Shown here: positions 2,192 to 47,373 of the stretch, piece by piece
Numbering within the stretch: the stretch's first letter is position 1
Layout: each line of letters starts with the position of its first letter
Assembly: GCA_017548075.1 (NCBI GenBank)
Contig: JAFYNL010000051.1
Span: forward strand, 1 to 59,938
DNA from: Bacteroidaceae bacterium
GTDB taxonomy: Bacteria; Bacteroidota; Bacteroidia; Bacteroidales; Bacteroidaceae
DNA: 59,938 bases
Direction: 5' to 3'
The notes under the pieces: generated by a model
Database searches by the model: none
Seen by the model: only the letters and a program-made list of their open reading frames with translations
Told to the model about the DNA's origin: nothing
Position numbers and translations under genes: made by a program

Positions 2192-2301
2192 TAACAGGGA
2201 ATGATGGCAAACATAACGTGTTACGATTGCAATCATAACATGTTATGATGAACGACATAACACGTTATGTTTGGCATCGTAACTGGAGGCGTTGACAGAT
2301 G
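2192..2301. repeat. 22-bp-period TAAC/GTTA array A
   Basis: TAAC starts at 2192, 2214, 2236, 2258 and 2280, an exact 22-bp period over five units. The three central units carry a full palindrome (TAACGTGTTA, TAACATGTTA, TAACACGTTA). A second, weaker dyad (GATTGCAATC) lies half-way between the first two of these palindromes. The array fills the gap between the mannanase stop and the ilvD promoter. Function unknown. Confidence 0.9.
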
Positions 2302-11434: not shown

Positions 11435-11896
11435 TTACTCAAGTCCCTGGATAGTTTCTTCATTCCTAATCACTTCGATGGCGTCGGCCTGAGCCTTTCG
11501 GCTAGGAACGAGATTGAAGACGGCGTCGTCGCGGAGGTTCTTGAACTCCTGACCAGGCGTCCAGCAAACATTCACGGCCTTGATCTTCTGAGCGTTGAAC
11601 TCGTCGGTGGTGTCGGCACCTTCGGTGGCAAGTTCGCAATGGAAGCTGCCGAGGTCGCCAAGACTTACCTTGTTGCCTGCGAGAAGTTGCTCGCGAAGAC
11701 AAGCGACGGCGTCGGTGAGAATGCCCTTCACAGTACCCTTGGAGAAGGGGCTGTTGTGGTCGGCGATGTGCTTACAGAAAGCGTCGAGGTCGAGAACCTC
11801 ATGAACCTGAGCGGTTCCGTAGGCCTTGGTCTCGGTGATGTCGGCCTTCTTCGTTCCGGGCTTCGTGCCCATAATCATAATACTGTAGTTAATCAT
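11435..11896 (-). CDS. HU-like DNA-binding protein (HIG type)
   Basis: 153 residues. The HU/IHF fold is visible in LDAFCKHIADHNSPFSKGTV, TDAVACLREQLLAGNKVSLG, DLGSFHCEL and a long C-terminal arm; the N-terminal extension with Lys/Thr (GTKPGTKKADITETKAYG) is typical of the Bacteroidota HU-HIG family. A nucleoid-type or element-specific DNA-bending protein is expected. It is paired with smalltalk and divergent from an HTH mini-protein, the usual constellation around the BT4734-type primase. The start at 11896 is followed by several Met; MIMGTK could be the real start. Its promoter region has two TAACTCGTTA palindromes. Confidence 0.88.
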   Translation of the reverse strand: MINYSIMIMGTKPGTKKADITETKAYGTAQVHEVLDLDAFCKHIADHNSPFSKGTVKGILTDAVACLREQLLAGNKVSLGDLGSFHCELATEGADTTDEFNAQKIKAVNVCWTPGQEFKNLRDDAVFNLVPSRKAQADAIEVIRNEETIQGLE

Positions 11897-11952: not shown

Positions 11953-11990
11953 CAAAGATAACTCGTTAAATTGCGCACTTTAACTCGTTA
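11953..11990 (-). promoter_or_regulatory. proximal promoter and paired operator of the HU-like gene
   Basis: Minus-strand -7 box TATCTTTG (11953-11960) overlaps the edge of the first of two identical palindromes TAACTCGTTA, at 11959-11968 and 11981-11990. Their spacing is 22 bp, two helical turns, exactly the period of the intergenic arrays. Binding of a dimeric regulator here would block the promoter (inference). Confidence 0.6.
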
Positions 11991-23319: not shown

Positions 23320-23326
23320 CGAAACA

Positions 23327-23458
23327 ACCCCAGTTACGTTGGCAAAGTTAACGTGTTATGATTGCAAAGTTAACGTGTTATGTTGGGCTACGTAACTGCA
23401 GTCGTTTGGAATGTTAACTGCAGTCGTTTGGAATGTTAACTGCAGTCGTTTTTCTACT
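23327..23458. repeat. 22-bp-period TAAC/GTTA array B
   Basis: Six units start at 23327, 23349, 23371, 23393, 23415 and 23437, exact 22-bp steps. Units 2-3 carry TAACGTGTTA; units 4-6 carry TAACTGCAGTCG, and units 4 and 5 are identical over all 22 bp. The array fills the convergent gap between the amidase gene and uvrA and touches the uvrA stop codon. Confidence 0.93.
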
Positions 23459-26318
23459 TCCCTGCCTTCAACTTTTCTTTGAGGAAGCGAGCCGTATAAC
23501 TTTCCTTGCATTTGGCGACTTGTTCGGGAGTTCCTGAGGCAAGGAGGAAACCGCCTGCATTGCCGCCTTCAGGACCTAAATCGATGATGTTGTCGGCACA
23601 CTTTATGACCTCCATATTGTGCTCGATGATGATGATGGTGTGACCTCTCGAAATCAAGGCGTCGAAGGCTTCGAGCAACTTGCGGATGTCGTGGAAATGC
23701 AGGCCAGTTGTGGGTTCGTCGAAGATGAAAATGGTGGGCTGATGCTTCTCCATTCCGAGGTAATAAGCCAACTTTACTCGCTGGTTCTCGCCTCCTGAAA
23801 GCGTGGACGACGACTGCCCAAGTTTAATGTAACCCAAGCCTACATCCTGTAGGGGTTTGAGCAAAGAAATGATACGCTGCTCTTTGTGCTCTGTGAAGAA
23901 TTCAATTGCCTGATTTATAGTCATATCGAGCACATCGCAGACATTCTTTTCGTAGAAGCGGACATCAAGTATTTCGGGCTTGAATCTTTGTCCGTGACAA
24001 CTCTCGCAAGGCAGCACCAAATCGGCCATGAACTGCATTTCTATGGTGACAGTTCCCTCGCCCTTACACTCCTCGCATCGGCCTCCATCGGTATTGAAAC
24101 TGAAATAGGCTGGTGTGAAACCCATTTGCTGAGCCAAAGGTTGGGCTGCAAAGAGTTTCCTTATCTCGTCCCAAGCCTTGACGTAAGTAACTGGATTTGA
24201 GCGGGTACTCTTGCCGATGGGGTTCTGGTCGACGAACTCGATAGCCTTCACCATCTTGGTGTCGCCTTCCAAAGAAAGGAACTCGCCAGGTCGGTCAGCC
24301 ACCTCATCCAATTGTCGCTTCATGGCATTATAGAAAATGTCGCGAACCAGACTGCTCTTTCCGCTACCGCTAACGCCTGTAACACAAGTCATTACGCCCA
24401 AAGGAAAGCGCACATCAATGCCCTTCAGATTGTTGGCTCTGGCTCCCTTCACCTCAATATAACTGCTCGTGCGACGACGGCTCGCAGGCAAAGGAATCAC
24501 CTCTTTGCCTGTAAGGAAATCAAAGGTGTAGGACTTTATTTTCTCCCCCTTTATGGGGGAGTTAGAGGGGGTCTGCCCTTGATAGACGACTTCACCACCC
24601 AATCTTCCTGCTTCAGGACCGATGTCGATGAGCCAGTCTGCAGAACGAATGATGTCTTCGTCATGCTCGACCACAATCACAGTATTGCCCAAGTCGCGAA
24701 GTTGCTTCAGAACCTTGATAAGTCGCTCTGTATCACGACTATGAAGGCCGATGCTTGGCTCGTCGAGGATGTAGAGACTGCCCACAAGACTGCTTCCCAA
24801 AGAGGTTGCAAGATTGATGCGCTGGCTCTCGCCACCAGAAAGGCTGTTCGAGGTTCGGTTGAGCGTCAAATAACCCAAACCCACATCCATCAGATATTGC
24901 AAGCGGTTCTTAATCTCAGTCAGGACTCGCTTTGCAATCTTCTCTTCATGCTCGTTCAACTTGAGACTCTCCACCCAAGGCAACAACTCGCTGACGGAAA
25001 TGTTGACCAAGTCTGTGATGCTCTTTCCGCCTACCTTCACATAATTGGCTTCTGGACGAAGCCGAGTTCCATGGCACTTCGGACAAATCGTCTTGCCACG
25101 ATAGCGAGCCAGCATGACTCGGTTCTGTATCTTGTATTGTCCTTGTCGCAGATAGTCGAAGAAAGCGTCGATGGAGAGCAATCCCCATTCGCGCTCTTCA
25201 GGCATTATCTGCCAGCTTTCAGGCACAAGGATTTCCTTTCCGCACAAGGTCTCGACCTTCATCTTCTGGTTCGATGGAACGCCGTGCCAAAGCCAATCTT
25301 TCTCCTCTTGAGTCAGCTCGAAATAAGGCTTGAAGATAGGGAAGCCGCGCTCCGAATTCATACGGATGAACCACTCCTTCCATTCGCTCATCTTCTCGCC
25401 TCGCCAACAGACAACCGCGCCTTCGTAAACGCTCATGGCCGTATTGGGAATGACCATTTGCTCGTCGATGCCGATGACTTGACCAAAGCCCTCGCATTCA
25501 GGACAAGCCCCAATTGGCGAGTTGAAGGCAAAGAGCTTATCTGTCGGCTCCTCGAAGGTAATGCCATCAGCCTCGAAACGAGTACTGAAGACATGCTTCT
25601 CGTTATTTGGGACAAACTGCAGAATAGCTGTTCCGTGGCCCTCATAGAAAGCCGTCTCGCAGGAATCCACAAGTCGGGCAATCGTATCGCGATCATTTCC
25701 CGTCACTAATCTGTCTATAACGAGGAACAAGTCACCTTCCTGACCTTTGTATTCCTCAATTCGGACCACCTCGTCGCCAGCATATAGACGAGCGAAGCCG
25801 CTCTTTCTATACATTTCAAGTTGTTGCTCGAGGGTGCGGTCTTCTGGACAAAGGATGGGGCACATTACCATCAACTTTGTGCCTTCAGGTTGAGCAAGCA
25901 TGCATTGGACGGCATCTTCGGTCGTGTGGCGCTTCACCTCTTTTCCGCTTACAGGCGAGAAAGTGCGACCAACTCGGGCAAAGAGAAGACGAAGGTACTC
26001 GTAAATCTCCGTACTAGTGCCGACGGTACTTCGAGGATTGCGGCTCGAAACCTTTTGCTCGATGGCAATTGCAGGCGGAATGCCTTTGATGTAATCGCAT
26101 TCAGGCTTGTTCATGCGGCCAAGGAACTGCCGGGCATAAGCACTCAGGCTCTCCACATAACGCCTCTGCCCTTCTGCATAAAGCGTATCGAAAGCCAAAC
26201 TGCTCTTGCCGCTTCCGCTCAAGCCTGTGACAACCACCAACTTGCCTCGCGGAATCTCAAGGCTGACGTTCTTGAGGTTATTGACTCGAGCCCCTTTTAT
26301 CTGAATGCAATCGTCCAT
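23454..26318 (-). CDS. uvrA: excinuclease ABC subunit A
   Basis: DNA-damage recognition ATPase of nucleotide excision repair. 954 residues with two ABC ATPase halves: Walker [11 protein letters not shown] near residue 33 and [10 protein letters not shown] in the second half, two LSGGE signatures, and zinc modules ([40 protein letters not shown]). In the inter-half linker about residue 585 the sequence [11 protein letters not shown] is encoded by a GC-rich hairpin that looks like an inserted repeat; the frame is kept and the conserved motifs are intact, so the protein should work. No linked uvrB or uvrC here. Its 3' end abuts array B. Confidence 0.97.
24543..24571 (-). repeat. palindromic repeat inserted in uvrA
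   Basis: CTCCCCC, TTTAT, GGGGGAG form a perfect 7-bp hairpin followed by a second G run (GAGGGGG). Read on the coding strand it gives the peptide SNSPIKGE. Such C/G-run palindromes are common between genes in Bacteroidota, which suggests capture of an intergenic element by the coding sequence. Confidence 0.7.
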
Positions 26319-33126: not shown

Positions 33127-33371
33127 CAAAGTTACGAATAAGCGAAGACAATACAAAATAAATTTACTTATTTTTGTTGTTGAGCGAGAGTAAGTTCGAG
33201 ATTTATCTCAAAGTTACGAATAAGCGAAGACAATACAAAATAAATTTACTTATTTTTATTGTTGAGCGAAAGTAAGTTCGAGATTTATCTCAAAGTTACG
33301 AATAAGCGAGCAAAAAGCCAAATTTAATTGAACTTTTTCGAGCGAGAGTAATTTCGACGATAGTCAAAGTT
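33127..33371 (-). repeat. tandem 82-bp promoter repeats
   Basis: Minus-strand TAACTTTG boxes at 33127-33134, 33209-33216, 33291-33298 and, degenerate, 33364-33371. The first three are exactly 82 bp apart. The first two have a TTTTG box 19 nt upstream with the same spacer (TATTGTCTTCGCTTATTCG). The repeated unit also contains GAGCGAGAGTAAGTTCGAG. All point at the MBL-fold gene. Confidence 0.9.
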
Positions 33372-33398: not shown

Positions 33399-33447
33399 TA
33401 GCACAGGTAAATAACAATTTTAACGTGTTAAGTTGGGTAACTCGACT
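33399..33447. repeat. weak TAAC/GTTA array C
   Basis: TAACGTGTTA at 33421-33430 with a degenerate unit 22 bp before it (TAGCACAGG at 33399) and another TAAC at 33438, which breaks the phase. Related to the arrays at 2192, 23327, 41880 and 47090 but poor. Confidence 0.5.
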
Positions 33448-41879: not shown

Positions 41880-41989
41880 TAACAAGTTACGATTGTCAAC
41901 ATAACACGTTAAATTGACAAACATAACACGCTAAGTCGGGCAACTTAACACGCTAAGTTTGCGATTTAACCACGTTATGATTTCCGAAG
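41880..41989. repeat. 22-bp-period TAAC/GTTA array D
   Basis: TAAC starts at 41880, 41902, 41924 and 41946 (exact 22-bp steps) and a fifth unit is shifted by 1 bp (41967) but its GTTA keeps phase. Cores include TAACAAGTTA, TAACACGTTA and TAACACGCTA. The last GTTA supplies the stop codon of the HAD gene. Confidence 0.9.
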
Positions 41990-46789: not shown

Positions 46790-46810
46790 CTTTAATCTAT
46801 ATTTCGCCTG

Positions 46811-46842
46811 CAAAGGTACGAATAAGTGAGCACAATACAAAA
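46811..46842 (-). promoter_or_regulatory. lysS promoter with the conserved spacer
   Basis: On the minus strand TTTTG, 19 nt (TATTGTGCTCACTTATTCG), TACCTTTG; the spacer agrees with those at aroC, GH27 and the MBL gene. Confidence 0.8.
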
Positions 46843-47051
46843 AGAAAACTTGAGTTTTTCTTTTTATTGTCGAATTATAGAACTTTCGAGTGTCTCAGTT
46901 GAGATTCTTAAGGAATCGAGATGCGCATTTAATACCAAAAGTAAGTACTGACAGACATCTGATTTAATCCTGCCGAAGAGTTCTCGTCGCAAACATCCGA
47001 AAAACATTTGACAAAACACCCTAAAAAGTGCTTCGTGAAAAGACGAAAAAT

Positions 47052-47373
47052 TTTGTAAAGATTTTGGTAAAAGGTCAAATTTGAGGTCTCAAAGCAGGTT
47101 GATTTCAAACTTAACTAGGGTTGTTTGCAAACGTAACAGGTTAAGTTTGCCAACTTAACACGTTAAAATTGCCAATTTCACTAGTGAAGTTGGACCTCAA
47201 AACACGCCTTTTTGCCCTGTTTTTCTGCCTTTGTAAACAAATTTTACACGCTAAGTAATTGATTATCAGCAGATGTCTTTCCCCTCTGAGAATCGATTCT
47301 TTTCGTCCGTCGCTCGTCTCGCTCGCAAATAAGCCATTCTCAGAAGGTCAAAAATTTCCAAAATCTTTACAAA
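47052..47373. repeat. 16-bp perfect inverted repeat with nested dyads
   Basis: TTTGTAAAGATTTTGG (47052-47067) is the exact reverse complement of 47358-47373. Inside lie TCTGAGAAT/ATTCTCAGA (47285-47293 / 47336-47344), the palindrome AGAATCGATTCT (47289-47300) and the TAAC array E. The 46790-47456 gap has no gene that I can support. Confidence 0.8.
47090..47265. repeat. 22-bp-period TAAC/GTTA array E
   Basis: TAAC at 47112, 47134 and 47156 with exact 22-bp spacing; degenerate units in phase at 47090, 47178 (TCACTAGTGA), 47200 and 47244 (TTACACGCTA). It lies in the gap between the lysS operon start and the 3' end of the flavodoxin cluster. Confidence 0.85.

What the first reader, a model, noticed from the sequence alone, without database searches (positions are those of the whole stretch)
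23327..23458. Exact 22-bp intergenic arrays built from TAAC-NN-GTTA palindromes
Six in-phase units here, with two identical neighbouring units, and independent arrays at 2192, 41880 and 47090 (weak at 33399). A 22-bp step equals two helical turns, so dyads lie on one face. The arrays sit in gaps and touch gene 3' ends (uvrA, HAD stop codons). I know no named element with this form.
Basis: seen in the sequence. Interest (0 to 1): 0.75.

Follow-up and report, generated by a model that had tools for sequence, protein, structure and literature searches.

The report
Evenly spaced 22-bp palindrome arrays
An uncultured gut bacterium and its close relatives carry many short DNA arrays, all built on an exact 22-base step, mostly at the ends of genes; the sites tend to stay put between species while the repeated letters change, which suggests landing strips for a fast-changing DNA-binding protein not yet identified.

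Summary
The window holds 12 TAACNNGTTA sites against 0.26 expected. Its genome holds 323 pairs at exactly 22 bp, against 0 for the reversed pattern. In a 29% genome sample, 69 arrays of at least two units all lie between genes. They are densest in convergent gaps and, in tandem gaps, near the upstream 3' end. They are more evenly spaced than chance, about 9 kb apart.

Close relatives carry 22-bp arrays too, often with other palindromic cores (CCGCGTGCGG, ACTAGTGTGA, GGCACGCC, CCCTATAGGG). Where this genome has an array, the orthologous gap in five relatives has a 22-bp array in 22 of 28 comparisons; where it has none, 1 of 37. Position and period are inherited while the half-site changes. Within the genome the arms do not covary and no transcribed strand is favoured, so RNA hairpins are not supported.

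Best reading: in-phase binding arrays for one or a few dimeric DNA-binding proteins with fast-evolving specificity, at transcription-unit ends; REP/BIME-like in place, but not a REP or BrickBuilt element by the tests made. The protein and the cellular effect are not shown.

The parts
2192..2289 (+). 22-bp array, five rows (2192, 2214, 2236, 2258, 2280), three exact cores; the whole array is nearly an inverted repeat (GT, AT, AC centres)
   Evidence: RNAfold pairs the two sides of the array
23322..23425 (+). 104-bp stretch (from AAACAACCCCAG) with a 90%-identical copy elsewhere in the sampled genome (L006:11918-12021)
   Evidence: family boundaries
23327..23458 (+). the reported array: six rows of 22 bp, two exact cores plus three CTGCAG-type outer rows, in the convergent gap between an Amidase_3 gene and uvrA
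33399..33430 (+). weak array: one exact core (33421) and a degenerate row before it
41880..41977 (-). five-row array; last row overlaps the stop codon of the HAD gene
47112..47187 (-). array of four rows, two exact cores, inside a longer (336-bp) dispersed repeat
23454..26318 (-). uvrA (neighbour, 3' end at the array)
   Evidence: TIGR00630, 1098 bits, over its cut-off

Best explanation
The arrays are double-stranded DNA binding sites. Each 22-bp row carries a dyad (here TAAC-GT-GTTA, with a directional GTGTTA half-site), and rows are kept exactly 22 bp apart, about two turns, so that dimers of a sequence-specific protein line up and bind cooperatively. The arrays lie mostly just after the ends of transcription units, evenly spread along the chromosome, where they most likely act as a boundary: a nucleoid or topology anchor, or a two-way roadblock between transcription units. 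The recognition half-site changes between species and the arrays follow at unchanged positions. Shown: exact phasing, place, even spacing, conserved positions, changed cores. Inferred: the protein, cooperative binding, the boundary role and the co-evolution.
For: Exact-core pairs up to 90 bp apart: 98 at 22, 38 at 44, 2 at 66, none at any other distance. Lag 22 leads lags 16-28 in a 392-kb sample of the genome (35 vs 0-1) and in 204 kb of motif-positive relatives (24 vs 0-1). Adjacent rows differ at 1.03 of 10 core positions, while spacers in one array differ as much as spacers of different arrays (5.35 vs 5.02 of 12): kept by selection rather than by fresh tandem duplication. Within the genome the arms vary independently (observed about equal to expected pairing), as for a protein motif. 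Orthologous positions: 22 of 28 vs 1 of 37. At 21 aligned orthologous exact cores the second base and its mirror stay A/T in 13, are C/G together in 6 and changed on one side in 2. Leading triplets after GTG: TTA here (130; next AAG 19), CGG in G026, CGG and TTA in G127, CCA and TTA in G123, TTA and TGA in G100, TGA and TTA in G129 (ACG counts as high as TGA there and second in G100; I read it as the second GTG of GTGTGACG). Spacing CV 0.56 vs 0.85 +/- 0.10 and 5 of 47 spacings under 4 kb vs 15.7 expected, 0 of 2000 permutations. Exact cores: 174 outside, 3 inside genes. No bias to the transcribed strand, 14 vs 16.
Against: No binding protein was identified. At the third core base the same 21 orthologous cores do not show paired change: kept 8, complementary on both sides 2, one-sided or unpaired 11; and of 25 aligned cores only 10 are palindromic at all four pairs, with cores such as TATAGTGTTA and ACTAGTGTGA. 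Several relatives carry more than one core family, so one protein is not enough there; in G076 and G012 few arrays have GTG in register (4 of 10, 1 of 3). The across-array covariation rests mostly on two families (TAA..TTA 15 and CCG..CGG 12 of 62; 30 of 62 fully complementary, 5 kinds). Divergent gaps are not avoided: 0.54 arrays per kb vs 0.57 tandem and 2.10 convergent. Arrays fold better than control gaps on both strands, as an RNA role would also give.
Confidence: 0.45

Rival explanations
1. A selfish, MITE-like repeat: an element of roughly 104 bp copied by a transposase in trans, surviving between genes because insertions in genes are lost.
For: Defined ends: information falls to about zero beyond the outer rows. 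A 90% copy over 104 bp at another locus. One array present in this genome and absent from all five relatives at the same gap (C2:116894). Burst-like abundance: 323 pairs here, 1-49 in 15 other genomes of 139. Divergent gaps hold arrays as densely as tandem gaps.
Against: Positions are conserved across species, 22 of 28 vs 1 of 37, with outer rows still alignable by eye between this genome, G129 and G100. Even spacing. No RAYT-type transposase, PF01797, in the 88%-complete genome; other transposases were not searched for. Genes between eight close array pairs look like ordinary cellular genes from their first residues, by eye. The 22-bp step is kept while spacers diverge.
Confidence: 0.22
2. 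RNA-level element: hairpins at transcript 3' ends that stop exonucleases or help termination on both strands.
For: Place in convergent gaps and near upstream 3' ends. Mean folding z -3.12 and -2.81 on the two strands of 35 arrays vs -0.76 for 75 control gaps. Terminator-like hits at 47 of 71 array ends vs 76 of 214. At L005:7832 the relatives without a 22-bp array (G088, G076, G012), and G035 at L005:18642, show GC-rich hairpins by eye.
Against: With arrays masked and the hairpin limit raised from -5 to -7, terminators are about equally frequent with and without arrays (19 of 71 vs 67 of 214), so the first excess lay largely in the arrays themselves. No covariation of arms within the genome, and slightly less pairing than expected at several variable positions. 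No strand bias of the GT strand (14 vs 16), although only that strand would give G-U pairs between rows. Independent hairpins would not need an exact 22-bp step.
Confidence: 0.19
3. Topology element: phased bendable DNA that wraps gyrase or a histone-like protein without strict sequence, after genes where positive supercoils collect (BIME-like).
For: Length of about five rows, convergent and 3'-end place, even spacing, very different sequences sharing one period. REPs/BIMEs lie downstream of genes (PMC3733652, abstract) and bind several proteins (PMC2817692, start of abstract in the listing).
Against: The strict core within this genome and the GT/AC centre (151 of 177 exact cores) point to sequence reading, not shape alone.
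Confidence: 0.12

Closest known systems
REP / BIME elements (GTAG- and CGTC-tagged palindromes)
   Same: High copy, extragenic, palindromic, downstream of genes and in convergent gaps; the CGTC type is reported from Bacteroidetes among others (PMC3733652, abstract and passages seen)
   Different: No GTAG/CGTC tag seen in the consensus, head-to-tail rows at an exact 22-bp step (84 same vs 14 opposite orientation) instead of mostly head-head dimers, no RAYT found, core changes between species at the same position
BrickBuilt (Porphyromonas gingivalis MITE with 23-nt tandem repeats)
   Same: Intergenic tandem repeats of similar unit length in Bacteroidales (PMC4596501, passages seen)
   Different: 19 copies in strain ATCC 33277, 23-nt consensus AGAYCATARTATCCTCTCRTRTG, terminal repeats like those of IS5-family elements, one copy of 991 nt; no resemblance to the unit here
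Plasmid iterons and other in-phase operator arrays
   Same: About 22-bp step and directional repeats for cooperative protein binding (recalled, no call)
   Different: Hundreds of chromosomal loci; one array (23322-23425) had no match in the plasmid or phage collections
Dispersed chromosome-organising sites (matS/MatP, SlmA and Noc sites)
   Same: Palindromic sites spread over the chromosome (recalled, no call)
   Different: Those are mostly single sites with a conserved recognition sequence (recalled); here arrays between genes whose sequence changes between species; no polarity with GC skew (32 vs 37)

Membership tests
REP (GTAG or CGTC type) | extragenic high-copy palindrome downstream of genes | tested here: met
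   69 arrays, 0 inside genes; 2.10 per kb in convergent gaps vs 0.57 tandem and 0.54 divergent; 29 of 32 tandem arrays nearer the upstream 3' end
REP (GTAG or CGTC type) | unpaired GTAG or CGTC tag at one end of the palindrome | tested here: not met
   aligned consensus of 35 arrays, read by eye, shows no GTAG or CGTC at unit ends
REP (GTAG type) | RAYT transposase (Y1_Tnp, PF01797) in the genome | tested here: not met
   0 matches in the 88%-complete genome; control rings in 5 of 14 genomes. CGTC REPs lack one anyway (PMC3733652, abstract)
REP (CGTC type) | 8-9 bp stem with 4-5 nt loop, CCA-like tail, mostly head-head dimers, clusters rare (PMC3733652, passages) | tested here: not met
   84 same vs 14 opposite neighbouring rows; 69 of 78 core clusters have two or more rows; arms do not covary within the genome
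BrickBuilt MITE | 23-nt consensus unit and IS5-type terminal repeats | tested here: not met
   135 of 140 unit steps are 22 (only 21-23 were allowed); the consensus differs from that printed in PMC4596501
MITE in general | terminal inverted repeats and target-site duplication at an empty site | tested here: inconclusive
   weak mirrored ends, AAACNA.. and ..GTNGTTT; one array-less orthologous gap seen but too diverged to read a duplication
Known structured RNA | match to an Rfam family | tested here: not met
   0 matches at gathering score in the window, 4227 families
Protein operator array | a protein that binds it | not testable with these tools
   no candidate identified

The most novel reading that the evidence does not exclude
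A clade of uncultured Bacteroidales has a genome-wide boundary system: a dimeric protein binds some 240 evenly spaced 22-bp arrays at transcription-unit ends, and its half-site (GTG followed by a triplet) is rewritten between species across the arrays of a genome while the sites keep their place: a bacterial counterpart of fast co-evolving binding proteins and satellite DNA.
Probability: 0.3. Interest if true: 0.9.

Novelty: new variant of a known kind. Interest (0 to 1): 0.72.

Why it matters
Bacterial intergenic repeats are usually explained as mobile debris or as conserved protein sites. Here position, period and spacing are kept while the letters turn over between species, which neither account predicts. 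If a protein reads these arrays, its recognition code and its targets have changed together within one genus, giving natural replicates of specificity switching. The even spacing and convergent place make a direct test of chromosome boundaries possible.

Tried and rejected
Local RNA hairpins with compensatory change: the across-array covariation (0 of 5000 shuffles reach stem positions 1-3) looked decisive, but it is mostly a difference between two large families, and within the genome pairing equals expectation. Directional KOPS-like polarity: no link with GC skew (32 vs 37), neighbouring arrays 27 same and 23 different. Arrays as intrinsic terminators: the first excess vanished when arrays were masked and the hairpin limit raised; arrays that terminate by themselves are not excluded. 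RAYT-driven REP: no PF01797. Autonomous element flanked by arrays: eight close array pairs enclose what look like ordinary cellular genes from their first 70 residues (not scanned with Pfam). Plasmid or phage origin: one array searched, no match in either collection; the single exact GT-GT pair in IMG/VR (L021) has a different spacer and looks like a chance duplication. Printed motif: 44 papers hold one of three strings; the titles of the 15 listed name no bacterial repeat. Not done: whole-proteome search for the binding protein; search for transposases other than PF01797; strain-level comparison.

Limits. Gene calls come from my own dicodon scorer, not a standard gene finder; some 'divergent' gaps may hide missed genes. 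Unit steps were sought at 21-23 only; with one mismatch allowed a few pairs at 21, 43, 65 and other distances appear. Array detection in relatives used a lag-22 score, so degenerate arrays are missed; the threshold was 11 and 14-18 elsewhere. Six of the 22 positive orthologous comparisons used long relative gaps (1.0-1.4 kb); without them it is 16 of 22. Relatives G129, G098 and G100 resemble each other, so comparisons are not independent. The 48 arrays held duplicates of one locus, so (distinct arrays) is the one to use. In one search masked N matched N in this genome's row, so I did not use it. In one search the reversed control also had 1-3 hits in five genomes, so counts of 1-3 there may be chance. 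The genome is 88% complete in 66 contigs.

Full report
What is there. The window has 12 TAACNNGTTA sites against 0.26 expected; six pairs lie exactly 22 bp apart, one pair at 44, and none at other lags from 8 to 49. The reported stretch has six rows in register with two identical rows, but only two of the six hold the exact core; the outer rows carry CCCCAG or CTGCAG centres. A further array at 11959 was missed.

Genome scale. The window is contig 45 of a 2.66-Mb, 66-contig genome, which holds 612 cores against 51 for the reversed pattern and 323 pairs at 22 bp against 0. I sampled 783 kb (5.7 kb of it N). It has 78 core clusters, 69 of them arrays of at least two units; unit steps, sought at 21-23, are 22 in 135, 21 in 4 and 23 in 1. 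The 138 exact-core pairs within 90 bp are at 22, 44 or 66; with one mismatch allowed a few pairs at 21, 43, 65 and other distances join them. By proportion the genome has some 240 arrays. A lag scan with no motif assumed, on the first 392 kb, gives 35 arrays at lag 22 and 0-1 at each other lag from 16 to 28.

Anatomy. Aligned arrays (35) show an element of about five rows with weakly conserved mirrored ends, AAACNA.. on the left and ..GTNGTTT on the right; information is near zero beyond. Neighbouring rows mostly point the same way (84 vs 14), and the centre is GT or AC in 151 of 177 exact cores. Adjacent rows differ at 1.03 of 10 core positions but 5.35 of 12 spacer positions, no less than rows from different arrays (5.02). 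So the rows are not fresh tandem copies (the identical rows at 23393-23436 are an exception); the core and the step are what is kept. Left and right arms vary independently within the genome.

Place. Of 69 arrays, 32 are in tandem gaps, 22 convergent, 13 divergent, 2 at stretch edges, 0 inside genes. Against gaps of at least 100 bp that is 2.10 per kb convergent, 0.57 tandem and 0.54 divergent, so divergent gaps are not avoided. In tandem gaps 29 of 32 lie nearer the upstream 3' end (median 54.5 vs 164.5 bp). The GT strand is sense in 14 and antisense in 16. Exact cores: 3 inside genes, where codon shuffling expects 2.1, and 174 elsewhere; 65 of 234 gaps hold an array. Arrays avoid each other: spacing CV 0.56 against 0.85 +/- 0.10, and 5 of 47 spacings under 4 kb against 15.7, with 0 of 2000 permutations of array status among gaps of the same class as extreme. 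There is no polarity with GC skew.

Relatives. TAACNNGTTA pairs occur in 16 of 139 genomes of the genus (323 here, 1-49 in the other 15; the reversed control has 1-3 in five genomes) and in none of 24 genomes of other families. But relatives have 22-bp arrays with other cores. In a lag scan of fetched stretches there are 24 arrays at lag 22 in 204 kb of motif-positive relatives (other lags 0-1), 6 in 483 kb of genus members chosen as motif-negative (lag 21: 9, probably coding; lags 24 and 28: 3 each), 1 in 261 kb of other families (lag 23: 2), and 8 in 649 kb around 80 uvrA genes (lag 21: 5). So it is strong in the near clade and weak elsewhere in the genus. G088 showed none in 55 kb.

Same place, other letters. 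I compared orthologous gaps (60-700 bp here) in three stretches with five relatives. Nine gaps with an array here gave 28 comparisons, 22 with a 22-bp array in the relative; twelve gaps without gave 37 comparisons, 1 with an array; six control lags gave mean fractions of 0.000 and 0.0045. Eight of the nine gaps have an array in at least one relative; the ninth (C2:116894) has one here only. At L005:7832 this genome has TAACGTGTTA, G026 CCGCGTGCGG, G129 six rows of which four are ACTAGTGTGA, G123 GGCACGCC, G127 TAACACGTTA, G035 an ATCACGTG-type array; G088, G076 and G012 have none that I see. Where orthologous rows align without gaps (25 of 35), the second base and its mirror stay A/T in 13 of 21 exact cores, are C/G together in 6 and changed on one side in 2; at the third base the figures are 8 kept, 2 changed together, 11 one-sided or unpaired; 10 of 25 are palindromic at all four pairs. 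At C3:31887 second base and mirror are C/G in all four rows of G129 where they are A/T here. One to three triplets after GTG lead in most of the better-sampled relatives. Among 62 distinct consensus units outside this genome, the three bases on each side of CGTG pair 44, 46 and 43 times against 25.5, 22.4 and 22.9 expected, but two families give 27 of the 30 fully complementary cases.

Mechanism. An exact step, a constrained core, independent arms, no favoured transcribed strand and conserved positions fit in-phase DNA-binding sites better than RNA hairpins or plain mobile debris. The one-sided changes fit a site read mainly through one half (GTGTTA) rather than a strict dimer site, so the dimer is the weaker part of the claim. 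The whole element can be copied to a new place, so a mobile past is likely. The boundary role is inferred from place and spacing alone; no protein is named.

Known kinds. REP/BIME elements share the place but not the tag, layout or transposase (PMC3733652, abstract and passages). BrickBuilt differs in unit, ends and number (PMC4596501, passages). The window has no Rfam match and one array had no plasmid or phage match. Eight paper searches listed nothing whose title or abstract start describes these arrays; the library holds only open-licence papers, so this is not proof of absence.

Noticed in passing
window 33127-33309: 82-bp unit repeated 2.2 times with 98% match in an intergenic stretch, with partial copies elsewhere in the sampled genome.
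   Followed up: no
window 47038-47373: 336-bp dispersed repeat, 95% identical to L001:4858-5193, that contains the 47112 array.
   Followed up: partly
window 46802-46890: Stretch at the 5' end of the class II tRNA synthetase gene with many similar copies (about 79-97% identity over 37-109 bases) in all five relatives searched; a second dispersed element, probably of another kind.
   Followed up: no
L188:7537, L189:12225, L191:5118, L192:19165, L198:19831, L102:10080: Relatives carry three-row 66-bp elements of 22-bp units that are self-complementary at 16-22 of 22 positions (such as TTGCTTCATCGCGATGAAGCAA); in L188 and L189 rows 1 and 3 are reverse complements of each other, by eye.
   Followed up: partly
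window 11435-11896: HU-HIG DNA-binding protein gene beside the 11959 array.
   Followed up: no
L008:9126-9300: Another multi-copy dispersed stretch found in all five relatives searched; L006:15477-15641 likewise in G129, G098 and G100 among the listed hits.
   Followed up: no
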